From Metallosphaera tengchongensis (lineage in GTDB: Archaea > Thermoproteota > Thermoprotei_A > Sulfolobales > Sulfolobaceae), in assembly GCF_013343295.1 (NCBI RefSeq), contig NZ_CP049074.1, forward strand, positions 1,159,501-1,223,500: a stretch of 64,000 bases of DNA. Reading direction: 5' to 3'. How positions within the stretch are numbered: the first letter of the stretch is position 1; each line of letters begins with the position of its first letter. The position numbers and the translations under genes are program-made. Under the pieces are notes generated by a model. That model ran no database searches. It worked only from the letters and a program-made list of their open reading frames with translations, and was not told the DNA's origin. This document shows positions 13,129-18,182 of this stretch, in pieces.

Positions 13129-14958
13129 TCATTTACCTATGGATTTTTTAATGATTTCTAAGGATTGAGGGTTTTCCAAGGAAGAAATATCACCTAAATC
13201 CCTGCCCAAGATTGTATTTCGTATCAACCTCCTCATTATCTTTGCGTTTCTAGTCTTAGGAAGTTCGGGGACTAACCTCAATTCGGATGGCATGAGTGCC
13301 TTCCCCAATTTTTCTTCTAAGTAGTTTACAATATCCTTTTCTAGTCCGTCTTTTATTATCTTCGGAACAGCTAGACAGATTATTCTCTCCCCCTTTAACT
13401 GATCCGGTACGCCCACGCATGCGCTCTCCACGACGGCTGGGTGCGAGTTAATTACCGCTTCGATCTCTCCTGGACCTACTCTCTTACCTGATACTTTTAT
13501 GGTATCATCGCTTCTTCCAAGTATGTAGAAATAACCCTCACTGTCCTTCATAGCCAAATCACCGTGAACCCACACACCTTTCCATTTGGACCAGTACGTG
13601 GAAATATACCTTTCTGGGTCCTTCCAGAATCCTCTAGTCATACCTGGCCATAAACTCAGTATTACGAGCTCACCCTCGTAGTTTGGGGGAGCGGCCTGAC
13701 CGTCTTCCCTCATCACTTCAGCCCTTATACCAGGGGACTGTCCGTTGAACGCTGAAGGCTTCATTTCCTTTACGACGTAGTTACCGAGTATCCCACCAGA
13801 AATTTCTGTACCACCAGAGTAGTTTATTACAGGAGCAGACGTAGCCTCAGCCACCCAGTTCCAGGACTCGGGATCGATTGGTTCTCCAGTGTTTCCTACC
13901 ACCCTGACGTCTAATTTCGCGTTGGGTCTAGAAGCCCTAAGGCTCCTAATTAGACTTGCCGAAAGTCCTAAAACCTTAACGTTGGCGGAGGATATGAACC
14001 TTTGAAGCGTTTCCGAGTCCGCAAAACCGTCGAGCAAAGCCATGTTAGCGCCTAAAATTAGCGAGCCAAACACCAGCCACGGTCCCATCATCCAGCCCAT
14101 GTCAGAAATCCATGAAACGAACTCTGTTTTTCTTACGTCAAAGTGGAAATACATATCTGCAGCTGCCTTTATCGGAAATCCGCCATGTACGTGGACGCAT
14201 CCTTTAGGTTTACCCGTAGTACCGGAGGTGTATATTATCATAAGAGGATCTTCACTCTCGGTCTCTTCATATCCGTCTCCTCCCTCCCTCAATAGATCCT
14301 CTAGGTTCCAATAGTCCTTAAGCTCCTTGTTTGTCTTCAAAGCAATTTTGATCAAATTGAACTTTTCCAGATTTCTAAAAGGTTCAATTTCTTTCCCCTT
14401 TCTCTTGTAACTATCGACAGTGAAAATTGCCCTCGCTTCGCTGTCCTCTAACCTAACCCTTATTGGTTCTTCTCCGTATCCAGAAAACAACGGAACCACT
14501 ATCATCCCAGCTCTCACTATACCTAGCATGATTGGCACTATCTCAGCCCTCATGGGCATATAGACTGCTACTCGATCTCCCTTCCTCAACCCGTTTCTTT
14601 TAAGCCAACTGGAAATCGACTTGGACCATTGTAAAACCTGAGAGGAAGTGAGCTCCTTTATATCCCCTTCTTCATTCATGGACCTAACCATTACATCTGG
14701 ACTATCCTTTATCTGATCCGAGATGTTTAGGCTGGCTCCAACAAACCACTTTGCCCACTCTCTACCTAGAGAAGTGTCGAGAACTCTTTTGGGTTTTTTC
14801 TTAAGAACAAGAGAAACCTCATCAAGAAAATCAGGCCAAAATACCTCAGGTTTACTCCAAGAGAGTTCTTGAAAATGGTTTAGAGATATACCTCGATGTG
14901 CCAGCCACTTTCCAATATTGCTTTCTTCTATCCAATCCCTATCAGGTCTCCATATCAT
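13129..14958 (-). CDS. Acyl-CoA synthetase (acetyl/acetoacetyl-CoA synthetase-like, ANL superfamily)
   Basis: 609 residues of the ANL adenylate-forming fold. The P-loop motif IIYTSGTTGKPKG lies near residue 240, the A5 motif is YSGGTEISGG, and the C-terminal hinge and lysine region is GRSDDTIKVSGKRVGPGEIE; the catalytic Lys appears in TRNAKIMRR. The long N-terminal part (WRPDRDWIEESNIGKWL) matches acetoacetyl-CoA/acetyl-CoA synthetase-like enzymes. It activates a carboxylic acid to its CoA ester. Its start overlaps the stop of the DUF35 gene by 4 bases, so it is the last gene of the minus-strand acyl-CoA operon. The substrate is unknown and may be a branched or cyclic acid. Confidence 0.9.
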   Translation of the reverse strand: MIWRPDRDWIEESNIGKWLAHRGISLNHFQELSWSKPEVFWPDFLDEVSLVLKKKPKRVLDTSLGREWAKWFVGASLNISDQIKDSPDVMVRSMNEEGDIKELTSSQVLQWSKSISSWLKRNGLRKGDRVAVYMPMRAEIVPIMLGIVRAGMIVVPLFSGYGEEPIRVRLEDSEARAIFTVDSYKRKGKEIEPFRNLEKFNLIKIALKTNKELKDYWNLEDLLREGGDGYEETESEDPLMIIYTSGTTGKPKGCVHVHGGFPIKAAADMYFHFDVRKTEFVSWISDMGWMMGPWLVFGSLILGANMALLDGFADSETLQRFISSANVKVLGLSASLIRSLRASRPNAKLDVRVVGNTGEPIDPESWNWVAEATSAPVINYSGGTEISGGILGNYVVKEMKPSAFNGQSPGIRAEVMREDGQAAPPNYEGELVILSLWPGMTRGFWKDPERYISTYWSKWKGVWVHGDLAMKDSEGYFYILGRSDDTIKVSGKRVGPGEIEAVINSHPAVVESACVGVPDQLKGERIICLAVPKIIKDGLEKDIVNYLEEKLGKALMPSELRLVPELPKTRNAKIMRRLIRNTILGRDLGDISSLENPQSLEIIKKSIGK

Positions 14959-15383
14959 TTCACTCTAACCCTAAGAGGAATATCGTATGTTTCGATTTCA
15001 ACCTTTCTCCCAATCTCAGGAACGCCGTCTAAGTAAGCCAACAGACCGCCAGAAGCTCCGTGGAATCTAATTAGTCCTATGGTTACAGGTTTTTCAAGAC
15101 GATTTCCGTCACTATCATAATACACCACGGTAAAAGTTTCAAGGTATGCCTCCTTAAGTTCCAAGTACTCTCCATTTTCAACGAAGCACTCCTCGCAGTA
15201 CATCCTTGGGGGTACGTAGACTTTCCCGCACTTTGGACACTTCCTCCCCAGGATCTTCCCCTCCTTCAACCCCTTTAGGAAATTCTCTCCGTCGCTTCCT
15301 ACCGTATACACGTAACTGTTAACTTCCATTACGTCCTTCCAAGTTAGGAGATCAGTTTCCCTTCCAGTCTTATCCCATGACAT
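14955..15383 (-). CDS. DUF35 OB-fold protein with zinc ribbon (paralog A)
   Basis: 142 residues. A rubredoxin-like zinc ribbon (RKCPKCGKVYVPP, then YCEECF; C-x2-C and C-x2-C) is followed by an OB fold (LETFTVVYYDSDG onward). DUF35 proteins are partners of thiolase-fold enzymes: in archaeal acetoacetyl-CoA thiolase/HMG-CoA synthase complexes and in the Ltp2/ChsH2 aldolase they bind the CoA ester. It is separated from paralog B by one base and carries a 102-bp stretch (15183-15284) identical to one in paralog B. It most likely pairs with one of the two thiolase-fold proteins upstream in the operon. Confidence 0.88.
   Translation of the reverse strand: MSWDKTGRETDLLTWKDVMEVNSYVYTVGSDGENFLKGLKEGKILGRKCPKCGKVYVPPRMYCEECFVENGEYLELKEAYLETFTVVYYDSDGNRLEKPVTIGLIRFHGASGGLLAYLDGVPEIGRKVEIETYDIPLRVRVK
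15183..15284 (-). repeat. 102-bp perfect direct repeat, copy in DUF35 paralog A
   Basis: By direct reading this segment is identical to 15682-15783 at all 102 positions. It encodes the zinc-ribbon portion of the DUF35 proteins. Outside it the two genes differ strongly, so recent gene conversion or partial duplication is likely. Confidence 0.9.
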
Positions 15384-15384
15384 A

Positions 15385-15894
15385 TTAGATCACCTCGAAG
15401 CACTCAATATCGTCTATGCTTCCTACCCTTTTTTCCGTAGGCCTCCATCGGGCTTTAACCCTCCTACCAAAAATCTTCATGTTTTTAACCTCCTCGTAAG
15501 AGCAACATATCCTGTGGAATAGTCCGGGGTAAACATAGTCCCTAGAGGTTGAAGGGAAAAGCCTTATGGTCCCTACAATCTCGGGTTCCTCTAACCTGTC
15601 CCTAGTCCAAGAGATGAAGCTAGCCACTGCCGTCATCACAACTCCCTCGTCTGAAACCTGCGTCCAGCTGGAAGTTGGGCAGAAGCACTCCTCGCAGTAC
15701 ATCCTTGGGGGTACGTAGACTTTCCCGCACTTTGGACACTTCCTCCCCAGGATCTTCCCCTCCTTCAACCCCTTTAGGAAATTACTTATTGCCTGTCCAG
15801 CGGTATAAGAGTATTTAGCCTCTGGTTTGTAGGTTATTGTAAAGTGGGTTTTCAATTCCTCATCCTTTAAAGGATGTAGAGTCATGTTCCTCAC
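15385..15894 (-). CDS. DUF35 OB-fold protein with zinc ribbon (paralog B)
   Basis: 169 residues: an N-terminal helix (residues 1-40, GQAISNFLKGLKEGK), a zinc ribbon with the same four Cys as paralog A, then an OB fold (VVMTAVASFISW onward). The zinc-ribbon segment is identical in DNA to that of paralog A, but the OB folds are only distantly alike, which suggests the two serve different partners or substrates. Its start abuts the stop of the thiolase-fold gene at 15895, so it is in the same operon. The partner role is inferred from the known DUF35-thiolase pairing. Confidence 0.88.
   Translation of the reverse strand: MRNMTLHPLKDEELKTHFTITYKPEAKYSYTAGQAISNFLKGLKEGKILGRKCPKCGKVYVPPRMYCEECFCPTSSWTQVSDEGVVMTAVASFISWTRDRLEEPEIVGTIRLFPSTSRDYVYPGLFHRICCSYEEVKNMKIFGRRVKARWRPTEKRVGSIDDIECFEVI
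15682..15783 (-). repeat. 102-bp perfect direct repeat, copy in DUF35 paralog B
   Basis: Second copy of the repeat at 15183-15284, in the same orientation and in the same reading frame, starting 499 bases away. Identical at every position by eye. Confidence 0.9.
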
Positions 15895-17070
15895 CTAGTT
15901 CCTCATAACTATCACAGTGGAGGCTTGCATTAGATCCCCCCACGCTTGGGCCACTCCTGTGTGAACAGGTCTTTTGACCTGCATTTTATCAGCTGTTCCC
16001 TTTAGTTGCCAGTAAATACTGATCACTTTCATTAACCCTGCAGCGGCTATGGGATTGCCAACCCCCAGTAACCCGCCGGAGGGACTGCTGGGAATGTCCC
16101 CGTCCTTGTCGAAGAACCCCTCTTTGAGCAGAGCTGGTGCCTCTCCCTTCCTGGCAAGAAGCAGCCCCTCTAAGTGGTGAAGTTCCTTGTAATCAAAGGG
16201 GTCATAAGGTTCAACCACGTCTACCTCCTTTTGAGGTCTTTCGACTCCAGCCATTTTGTAGGCCATCCTCGCGGCGTTCTCCAAATACCTAGGGTAAGCT
16301 AGTTCCCTGTTGGGCCAGGTTGTGTTGTCCAAAGTCCATCCGACCCCTTCAATCCACACAGGGGTATCTGTGTACCTTCTAGCTACATCCCCATCTACCA
16401 TGACCATGGCTGCAGCCCCATCACTAACAGGACTTACGTCAAGTAGCTGAACTGGCCATACTAGAACCTCGCTCCTAAGCACATCATCCACGGTGATTTC
16501 CCCTCCCAGTTGAGCGTATGGGTTGACTGAGGCGTTTCTCTTGTTCTTAACTGACACTAAGGCTATCTCTTCCTTACTAACGTTATTCACGTGCATGTAC
16601 CTGTGCATTTCCATTGCGAAAATCCAGATCAGGTTCGGGTTGAGAGGTTTTTCGGTGATCGGATCCCAGATGTATCTAAATACTGCTTGAGGGTGTGGTC
16701 TACCAGGGCTCATCTTCTCTTCAGCCACAGCTAGGACTTTCTTGCACATGCCACTTGCCACATGGTACCACGCAGAAATTGCTGTCATTACCCCAGTGGC
16801 ACCTCCAACGAAGACTCTGCTCACAGGCCTCCCTGTACCTCCTGAACCGTGGGCCAGGTATTCGCCCTTCATATGAACCCCATCAAACGCATCAGGGGCA
16901 CTTCCTATTACGACGCAATCTATATCCTTCAACTCCAAGTTTGCCTCCTCCAGCGCCTTCCTGGACGCTTCCCACGCTAACTCTTGTGGGGTTTCAAGGA
17001 ACCTTCTCCTGAAGGGGGTCATCCCGGCCCCTATGGCTGCTACTTTCCTATACTTTAAGTTTACCCTCAT
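15895..17070 (-). CDS. Thiolase-fold protein without catalytic Cys (SCP2/Ltp2-like), paralog 1
   Basis: 391 residues from ATG 17070, which overlaps the stop of the upstream gene (ATGA); a longer frame to 17118 exists but would run into the neighbour. The fold is SCP2-type thiolase (VAAIGAGMTPF start, EASRKALEEANLELKDID). The position of the nucleophilic Cys (usually CASG) reads GGATGVM, and the usual GHP motif reads GVGNPIAAAG, so classical thiolysis is not expected. It keeps EPYDPFDYKELHHLEGL, resembling the Tyr-rich segment of Ltp2 aldolases. With DUF35 neighbours it may cleave or form C-C bonds by an aldol route; this is inference. Confidence 0.82.
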   Translation of the reverse strand: MRVNLKYRKVAAIGAGMTPFRRRFLETPQELAWEASRKALEEANLELKDIDCVVIGSAPDAFDGVHMKGEYLAHGSGGTGRPVSRVFVGGATGVMTAISAWYHVASGMCKKVLAVAEEKMSPGRPHPQAVFRYIWDPITEKPLNPNLIWIFAMEMHRYMHVNNVSKEEIALVSVKNKRNASVNPYAQLGGEITVDDVLRSEVLVWPVQLLDVSPVSDGAAAMVMVDGDVARRYTDTPVWIEGVGWTLDNTTWPNRELAYPRYLENAARMAYKMAGVERPQKEVDVVEPYDPFDYKELHHLEGLLLARKGEAPALLKEGFFDKDGDIPSSPSGGLLGVGNPIAAAGLMKVISIYWQLKGTADKMQVKRPVHTGVAQAWGDLMQASTVIVMRN

Positions 17071-18182
17071 CTCCTTACCACCACCACCCCTCCTGTAAAA
17101 GTGGGAATGCCCCTCCAACTCGCTACAATGGCGCTTTCCCCTCCTTCTCTCAGAAATTCCACAGCGTCGACAAGTAGCGAGAGGCCAGACGCTTCCAAGG
17201 GGAAACCCTTAGCCAAGTGGCCTCCCTTAGGGTTAACAGGCAAGTAGCTACCCCGATGGAAATATCCCTCGCGTAGTTTATCTGCAACCTCTTTGATACC
17301 TAAGGCCTCTAAGTGCATTAGCTCCTTGTAGCTATATCGGTCATCCACGAATATTCCGCTCACCTTAAGAGGAGACTCCAACCTAGCCATAGAGTAGGCG
17401 TTCTGCGCAGAGATCCTTACGTACTTTGCTTCCCCGAGACTGGCGAGCTCCAGATTCGAATTGTCCGTTGCGAAACCAATTCCGTTAATCCAAATTGGTG
17501 TATCGTTAAATTTTCTTGCGTAACTTTCAGATGCTAACACCACAACAATTGCTCCATCCACAGGTCTTGCTATATCAAGCGCAGTTAGAGGATGTACTAA
17601 AACCTCCTGGGAAAGGACGTCTTCCTTGTCTAGGAGGGCTGAAAAGGGCGCTCTATCCGTCTTTAATCCAGCCGATCTGTTTTTAACCACAACTTCCGCT
17701 AGGTCCTCCCTTGTAATTCCCGTCCTACTCATGAATTTCGTGGCGTCAAGTCCAGCTATGAAGTGATAGTTTACTACACTCCTCCTGATGTAAGTGGGAT
17801 CCATGGCCAATTCCATTATCTTCGAAAAGGTCAAAATATCGCTTGGTTTAGCGTGAGATTCAACTGCTACCACATCAGCTACACCAGAGTTTATGAGCAT
17901 AATACCGTGAGCGATCCCCTGTAAGCCGTCTCCCGCCACGGTCATTGTGGGTCTCATGGCCCCTCCTATAGGGTCTGGGGCGAATTCATCTGAAATAGAT
18001 ATACCTTCCCAAAAATCTTCCTGACATGATATAAATGCATCCACTTGTTCTCTTGGATTTATCCCTCCCGCATCATAATACGCCCTTTGAGATGCCTCGA
18101 ACATCATTTCCCTGAAGGATAGATCATGAACGTGGGGTGAAAAGCCGTACCATCCTACCCCCACTATTCCAACACTTTCCAC
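17067..18182 (-). CDS. Thiolase-fold protein without catalytic Cys (SCP2/Ltp2-like), paralog 2
   Basis: 371 residues, a second thiolase-fold protein and diverged paralog of the next gene. The Cys position reads VAGDGLQG (family CASGLQ), and the late His motif reads AKGFPLEASG instead of GHPxGATG. It shares with paralog 1 the segment DDRYSYKELMHLEALG and the ending GxxVVVR. Loss of both catalytic residues in both paralogs argues for a heteromeric, non-thiolytic enzyme such as an Ltp-type aldolase or an acyl-binding partner. It is the first gene of the thiolase-DUF35-synthetase operon; an AT-rich promoter lies at about 18190-18230. Confidence 0.82.
   Translation of the reverse strand: MESVGIVGVGWYGFSPHVHDLSFREMMFEASQRAYYDAGGINPREQVDAFISCQEDFWEGISISDEFAPDPIGGAMRPTMTVAGDGLQGIAHGIMLINSGVADVVAVESHAKPSDILTFSKIMELAMDPTYIRRSVVNYHFIAGLDATKFMSRTGITREDLAEVVVKNRSAGLKTDRAPFSALLDKEDVLSQEVLVHPLTALDIARPVDGAIVVVLASESYARKFNDTPIWINGIGFATDNSNLELASLGEAKYVRISAQNAYSMARLESPLKVSGIFVDDRYSYKELMHLEALGIKEVADKLREGYFHRGSYLPVNPKGGHLAKGFPLEASGLSLLVDAVEFLREGGESAIVASWRGIPTFTGGVVVVRR

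What the first reader, a model, noticed from the sequence alone, without database searches (positions are those of the whole stretch)
15183..15783. 102-bp perfect repeat between two otherwise diverged DUF35 genes
Bases 15183-15284 and 15682-15783 are identical at all 102 positions by direct reading, but the sequences on each side differ widely (OB folds only distantly alike). This points to a recent gene conversion or fragment duplication limited to the zinc ribbon, or strong selection to keep one interface identical. Direct repeats in the same operon could also recombine and delete 499 bp in frame or out of frame.
Basis: seen in the sequence. Interest (0 to 1): 0.6.

Follow-up and report, generated by a model that had tools for sequence, protein, structure and literature searches.

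The report
Twin gene segments kept identical together
In the hot-acid archaeon Metallosphaera, two neighbouring genes that otherwise look very different share one short stretch (about 90-104 letters, coding a zinc-binding docking module) that is letter-for-letter identical inside every species but different between species, showing that the cell keeps recopying this stretch from one gene to the other.

Summary
The 102-bp perfect repeat is real (15183-15284 = 15682-15783). It codes residues 34-67 of DUF35-B and 38-71 of DUF35-A: the helix end and zinc knuckles of the zinc ribbon. It is neither chance nor a one-off. All six Metallosphaera genomes held have the same A-B operon, and in each the two ribbon segments are 100% identical over 87-104 nt. 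Between species the segment differs at 11-21 of 87 positions, mostly silently. Flanks are only about 30-45% identical. The 3' edge is at the same codon boundary in five of six species (2 nt further in the sixth); the 5' edge varies. None of 17 tandem pairs from other Sulfolobaceae genera shows it. This is domain-limited concerted evolution by recurrent, probably ongoing, short-range gene conversion. Selection on the protein alone cannot explain it, because silent sites match within genomes and diverge between them. A second example in these genomes is the shared tail of ribosomal L10/L12. In the window's genome every isolated perfect block of at least 60 nt is a direct repeat less than 1.3 kb apart. 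A known kind of process (compare MtrA-1/MtrA-2 in methanogens), on an unusually small module. Why it is kept identical (likely docking on a shared thiolase-like partner) is inferred.

The parts
15682..15783 (-). Homogenised block, copy in DUF35-A (codes residues 38-71, NFLKGLKEGKILGRKCPKCGKVYVPPRMYCEECF)
   Evidence: 100% identical to 15183-15284; zf-ChsH2 Pfam hit 41-71; orthologous block 87-104 nt identical to copy B in all six Metallosphaera
15183..15284 (-). Homogenised block, copy in DUF35-B (codes residues 34-67, same 34 aa)
   Evidence: B is the orthologue of SSO2064/3IRB with Zn ligands C49, C52, C63, C66
15385..15894 (-). DUF35-A gene, 169 aa; zinc ribbon plus an OB-like fold that Pfam does not recognise
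   Evidence: Pfam zf-ChsH2 only; AlphaFold model pLDDT 82 matches 3IRB, Ltp2-ChsH2(DUF35), PhlB and BbsA chains
14955..15383 (-). DUF35-B gene, 142 aa; zinc ribbon plus OB fold (SSO2064 orthologue)
   Evidence: Pfam zf-ChsH2 and OB_ChsH2_C; 3IRB E=4.6e-47 over 1-141
15895..17118 (-). Thiolase-fold partner 1, adjacent upstream gene (start codon uncertain); 88-92% identical across Metallosphaera; lacks the thiolase nucleophile Cys and both catalytic His positions
   Evidence: Thiolase_N/Thiolase_C_1; alignment to 7YVY/6ESQ; synteny and identity
17067..18182 (-). Thiolase-fold partner 2 (diverged thiolase homologue)
   Evidence: Thiolase_C_1; 7YVY alignment; conserved in all six species
13129..14958 (-). 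Acyl-CoA synthetase (AMP-binding) gene directly downstream of B
   Evidence: Pfam, synteny

Best explanation
The repeat is the footprint of recurrent, short-range, non-crossover gene conversion between two adjacent DUF35 genes that started as ordinary diverged paralogues. In an ancestor of Metallosphaera the zinc-ribbon segment of one gene, mostly the A type, replaced that of the other. The resulting block of about 100 bp of perfect identity, 498-499 bp from its twin on the same strand, is long enough for homologous pairing, so each new mutation in one copy is soon erased by, or copied into, the other. The block stops where identity with the diverged flanks ends, hence the sharp edges. Both copies therefore evolve together and drift as a pair between species. 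It probably persists because the segment codes a shared docking module (helix end plus zinc knuckles) facing the same thiolase-like partner, so a converted copy is tolerated or favoured, whereas conversion into the OB folds would destroy function. SHOWN: the identity pattern, genus-wide recurrence, silent-site evidence, edges, and absence outside the genus. INFERRED: the recombination route (short-patch repair or fork-associated template switching), the initial direction, and the docking rationale.
For: 0/87 differences within each of six genomes versus 11-21/87 between species, and 8-16 of 29 codons differ synonymously between species. Silent-site divergence in the block is like that of its flanks, so it is not frozen DNA. 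The longest within-genome identity runs are 87-104 nt; permutations never exceed 29, p=5e-5 with 20,000 shuffles. Bound: within-genome divergence <0.57% (95%), about 3% of mean between-species divergence, so the last homogenisation in each lineage is recent. On the ribbon tree A and B pair by genome, not by gene; starred branches force 6 changes for 6 rows. Operon and spacing are conserved. No other exact repeat of at least 30 nt lies in the 19-kb operon regions fetched from four other Metallosphaera, although thiolase and acyl-CoA dehydrogenase paralogues are there. Metallosphaera ribbons carry the A-type residues R(-2) and P(+10), present in 16/16 other A genes. Independent positive control: L10/L12 tails are identical over 99-124 nt in 4 of 6 Metallosphaera and long runs occur in other genera. 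Short-patch gene conversion is documented in Sulfolobus acidocaldarius (PMC4471258).
Against: The recombination step itself was not observed; only one genome per species was available, with no reads. The initial direction is not clean: position +1 is B-like (Pro), and AU tests on 87 nt do not separate A-side from B-side origin (p 0.19 vs 0.26). A 100-bp direct repeat should also cause deletions, and none of the six genomes shows one, so deletion products must be rare or selected against. The docking rationale rests on homologous complexes, not on this one.
Confidence: 0.9

Rival explanations
1. Purifying or convergent selection on the protein keeps one interface identical in both genes, without DNA transfer.
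For: The block coincides with a zinc-ribbon docking module; amino acids are conserved within the genus.
Against: All silent positions are identical between A and B in each genome, while 8-16 of 29 codons differ synonymously between species. Protein selection cannot match silent sites within a genome. In 17 other Sulfolobaceae pairs the two ribbons differ (49-73 of 96 nt identical) and apparently work.
Confidence: 0.01
2. A single recent fragment duplication in this genome only.
For: Would explain one genome's perfect repeat.
Against: The same block, in its own species-specific version, occurs in all six species at the same codon position, spacing and right edge. Six independent identical insertions are implausible; an ancestral event with no later homogenisation predicts differences of the order of the 11-21 seen between species, and 0 are seen.
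Confidence: 0.01
3. Assembly or sequencing artefact (collapsed or mis-copied repeat).
For: No reads could be inspected.
Against: Six genomes, each with its own version; five of them single-contig assemblies; a 102-bp repeat is shorter than common read lengths; the named record M. javensis AS-7 (AP024487.1, L033) is one of them.
Confidence: 0.01
4. The DNA or RNA sequence of the block itself is functional (regulatory or structural element needed twice), so it is conserved as nucleotide sequence.
For: Perfect nucleotide identity between copies.
Against: The nucleotide sequence is not conserved between species (13-24% difference) and silent divergence is like that of the flanks.
Confidence: 0.02
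5. The repeat is a programmed recombination site: deletion between the copies makes a chimeric single DUF35 as a phase-variable switch.
For: Direct orientation; deletion would be in frame and give a plausible 146-aa protein.
Against: All six genomes keep both genes; no recombinase gene was noticed among the conserved operon neighbours; repeat sequence and 5' edge vary between species.
Confidence: 0.04

Closest known systems
MtrA-1/MtrA-2 of Methanococcales and Methanomicrobiales (PMC4632066)
   Same: Two adjacent operon genes in archaea; one domain homogenised within each species by long-lasting gene conversion while another domain diverges; interpreted as keeping interactions in a complex.
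   Different: There a whole MtrA domain is homogenised (92-99.7% identity) and the other domains differ by fusion. Here only 87-104 nt are homogenised, to 100%, inside genes whose flanks are about 30-45% identical, with sharp edges.
Long-lasting concerted evolution in prokaryotes, 26 genes (Wang & Chen 2018, PMC6053082)
   Same: Within-genome paralogues closer than orthologues at silent and coding sites; mostly proteins of complexes.
   Different: The text names no DUF35, Sulfolobus or Metallosphaera; the cases described there are gene-level, here the unit is a block of about 100 nt.
Shared C-terminal tail of ribosomal stalk proteins L10(P0) and L12(P1) in Sulfolobaceae
   Same: Adjacent genes, blocks about 350-370 bp apart, share a perfect block of about 100 nt coding a binding tail; species-specific identity in 4 of 6 Metallosphaera and several other genera.
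   Different: The bodies of the genes are not DUF35-like paralogues; the block reaches past the stop codon; the homogenisation has lapsed in some species (G007 72/99, G009 88/99).
Short-patch gene conversion in Sulfolobus acidocaldarius (review PMC4471258)
   Same: Short, patchy non-reciprocal tracts in a relative of this organism; a plausible molecular route.
   Different: Measured between transformed DNA and chromosome, not between linked chromosomal repeats.
SSO2064 (PDB 3IRB) and DUF35-thiolase complexes (6ESQ, 6OK1, 7PXP, 5M3K, 9MYR)
   Same: DUF35-B is the SSO2064 orthologue; A has the same fold; thiolase-like genes adjoin.
   Different: Here there are two DUF35 and two thiolase-fold proteins; no structure of this complex exists among the hits.

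Membership tests
Concerted evolution by gene conversion | Paralogues within a genome are more alike than orthologues between species | tested here: met
   0/87 within, 11-21/87 between, 6 of 6 species
Concerted evolution by gene conversion | Synonymous sites share the pattern | tested here: met
   8-16 of 29 codons differ silently between species, none within
Concerted evolution by gene conversion | Duplication predates the species (orthologous, syntenic pair), not independent tandem duplications | tested here: met
   A and B flanks differ widely and are orthologous across the family; operon order conserved
Concerted evolution by gene conversion | Tract with edges against unconverted flanks | tested here: met
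   5' edges at -45 to -30 nt, 3' edge at +57 in five species and +59 in one; flank identity 21-26 of 69 and 15-21 of 48 nt
Concerted evolution by gene conversion | Transfer demonstrated experimentally | not testable with these tools
   no reads, no strains
DUF35 (zf-ChsH2 plus OB_ChsH2_C), gene B | Both Pfam domains above cut-off | tested here: met
DUF35, gene A | zf-ChsH2 domain above cut-off | tested here: met
   42.5 bits vs cut-off 23.2
DUF35, gene A | C-terminal OB fold | tested here: inconclusive
   no Pfam OB match, but the AlphaFold model (pLDDT 82, pTM 0.69) matches DUF35 chains including 3IRB, TMq 0.55
Catalytic thiolase (neighbour 15895-17118) | Nucleophile Cys and catalytic His residues | tested here: not met
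   CASG->GATG, HDAF->YDPF, GHP->GNP in the alignment to 7YVY
Steroid-aldolase-like (Ltp2/Sal) complex | Thiolase fold without thiolase nucleophile, with DUF35 partner, catalytic Tyr residues | tested here: inconclusive
   Fold, lost Cys and DUF35 partner fit; a Tyr replaces the HDAF His; activity and substrate not tested

The most novel reading that the evidence does not exclude
Metallosphaera and relatives run an efficient short-range copying process (for example template switching or short-patch repair at replication forks) that continually homogenises same-strand homologous blocks of about 100 bp lying within about 1 kb, without crossovers. Genomes exploit it to keep protein-docking modules of neighbouring genes identical (DUF35 zinc ribbon, ribosomal stalk tail).
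Probability: 0.25. Interest if true: 0.7.

Novelty: new member of a known kind. Interest (0 to 1): 0.5.

Why it matters
It is a clean natural assay of gene conversion in thermoacidophilic archaea: a module of about 100 bp kept 100% identical in six species between flanks too diverged to recombine. It bounds the minimal homology and range of ectopic conversion, warns against treating A or B ribbons as independent characters in phylogeny, and points to the zinc ribbon as the interchangeable part of a two-DUF35, two-thiolase-fold complex.

Tried and rejected
Genome-contig scan with protein A found only one relative (M. javensis), so it added a species name but no new species. AU tests on the 87-nt block could not decide whether the ancestral donor was A or B, and the test of a MetA clade failed to run because A and B rows are identical. 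Pilin genes (290-nt block, G000 only) were tested as a second genus-wide case and rejected: no linked repeat in the other species. Literature searches for gene conversion with Metallosphaera, or between L10 and L12 in Sulfolobus, found no prior report in the held library. Rejected: chance, artefact, one-off duplication, protein-level selection alone, conserved DNA element.

Full report
OBSERVATION. The two segments 15183-15284 and 15682-15783 are identical over 102 nt, 499 bp apart, same strand. The sequence occurs nowhere else in the genome. They lie in the same codon phase in two adjacent minus-strand genes, DUF35-A (15894-15385, 169 aa) and DUF35-B (15383-14955, 142 aa). They code NFLKGLKEGKILGRKCPKCGKVYVPPRMYCEECF, residues 38-71 of A and 34-67 of B, which is where Pfam places zf-ChsH2. 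B is the orthologue of SSO2064 (3IRB, E=4.6e-47), whose zinc ligands are Cys49, 52, 63 and 66 (PMC2954200). The block therefore runs from the helix before the ribbon to one residue past the last zinc ligand. A has no Pfam OB match, but its AlphaFold model (pLDDT 82) resembles DUF35 chains, best 3IRB.

COMPARATIVE TEST. A search of 31 Sulfolobaceae genomes gave the A-B pair in 23 genomes (G004 and G021 gave only one gene to the motif search). The window's genus has six genomes; one is M. javensis AS-7, and G009 has the length I remember for M. sedula DSM 5348 (memory, not tested). In all six, A and B are 100% identical over 87, 96, 101, 101, 102 and 104 nt. The 3' edge is 57 nt after the start of the first Cys codon in five species and 59 in one; the 5' edge lies between -45 and -30. 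Each species has its own version: 11-21 of 87 nt differ between species, with 8-16 of 29 codons changed silently. In 17 pairs from other genera only 49-73 of 96 nt match and no run exceeds 13 nt. Nine loci from other families of the order show no exact repeat of 18 nt or more. Permutation never gives a run above 29 nt in the six genomes. The ribbon tree pairs A with B of the same genome in every Metallosphaera.

TIMING. With 0 differences in 522 compared sites, within-genome divergence is below 0.57% (95%), about 3% of the mean between-species divergence. Homogenisation has therefore recurred recently in each lineage and is probably continuing. The initial event was most likely A onto B: Metallosphaera has Arg at -2 and Pro at +10, fixed in the A genes of other genera and absent or rare in their B genes. 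However, Pro at +1 is B-like and the AU test is undecided.

IS IT SPECIAL IN THE GENOME? I fetched the window's genome in pieces (5 kb is masked) and listed isolated perfect blocks, that is at least 60 nt with both 60-nt flanks under 60% identical. Eighteen pairs remain after removing contig ends and self-overlapping copies. All are direct repeats and all are within 1.3 kb; several belong to tandem arrays inside one gene. Between different adjacent genes the cases include DUF35-A/B, the L10/L12 tails (111 nt), two pilin genes (290 nt) and a pair of small HEPN-like genes (134 nt, name by appearance only). The L10/L12 tail is concerted too: identity runs of 111, 99, 124 and 113 nt in four of six Metallosphaera, 53 in G009 and none of note in G007, with long runs in other genera. 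The process is therefore not peculiar to DUF35. In the 19-kb operon regions fetched from four other Metallosphaera the DUF35 block is the only exact repeat of 30 nt or more, despite thiolase and acyl-CoA dehydrogenase paralogues.

MECHANISM. Silent-site identity within and divergence between genomes requires copying of DNA. Short-patch gene conversion is documented in Sulfolobus acidocaldarius (PMC4471258). I infer that once about 100 bp of identity exists, repeated non-crossover conversion maintains it, and the diverged flanks set the edges. The restriction of such blocks to same-strand, under 1.3 kb distances fits a local process such as template switching or short-patch repair, but local tandem origin of paralogues would give the same bias, so this is suggestive only. 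A crossover would delete 499 bp and leave an in-frame 146-aa chimera; no genome shows it, so both OB folds are probably needed.

WHY THIS MODULE. In Sal-DUF35 the DUF35 N-terminal helix and OB domain wrap a thiolase-fold helix, and the zinc finger packs against another and shapes the cleft (PMC12329534). In the window, two thiolase-fold genes precede A and B, in the same order in all six species; the nearer one is 88-92% identical across the genus, against 76-82% for A and 68-73% for B. That two DUF35 proteins dock through the same ribbon is a reasonable inference, not shown. It is not required for the conversion, since other genera manage with two different ribbons.

KNOWN OR NEW. Domain-limited concerted evolution between operon neighbours is known from MtrA-1/MtrA-2 (PMC4632066), and 26 long-lasting prokaryotic cases are listed in PMC6053082, whose text names no DUF35 or Sulfolobus. 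The present case is a new member, remarkable for the small size (about 100 nt), perfection and sharp edges of the block.

LIMITS. One genome per species, no reads, no experiment; the library holds only open papers, so an older report cannot be excluded.

Noticed in passing
window 15895-17118 and 17067-18182: Both thiolase-fold neighbours lack the usual nucleophile Cys (CASG->GATG in the first); the first also has HDAF->YDPF and GHP->GNP. It may be a retro-aldolase-like (Ltp2/Sal-like) or non-thiolytic complex, not a thiolase.
   Followed up: partly
own genome G000:C1:328826-328936 and 329178-329288 (L147): L12(P1) and L10(P0) genes share a perfect 111-nt tail block; species-specific identity recurs in Metallosphaera and other Sulfolobaceae, a second case of concerted evolution.
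   Followed up: yes
own genome G000:C1:499754 and 500451 (L159): Two tandem archaeal pilin-like genes share a 290-nt perfect block at their 5' ends; no such linked repeat in the other Metallosphaera, so probably a recent local duplication or conversion.
   Followed up: partly
own genome G000:C1:1520831 and 1521171: Two adjacent small HEPN-like genes share a perfect 134-nt block.
   Followed up: no
own genome G000:C1 ends (1-488, 742-1229, 2176410-2176897): The contig ends repeat the same 488-495 bp, which looks like an untrimmed circular overlap or a tandem repeat at the origin of the record.
   Followed up: no
own genome G000:C1 near 1948736-1949684: Array of GTTGATCTTCCATAGAGTTGAAAG-type repeats with unique spacers (CRISPR-like); a 106-nt block inside it is duplicated 248 bp away.
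   Followed up: no
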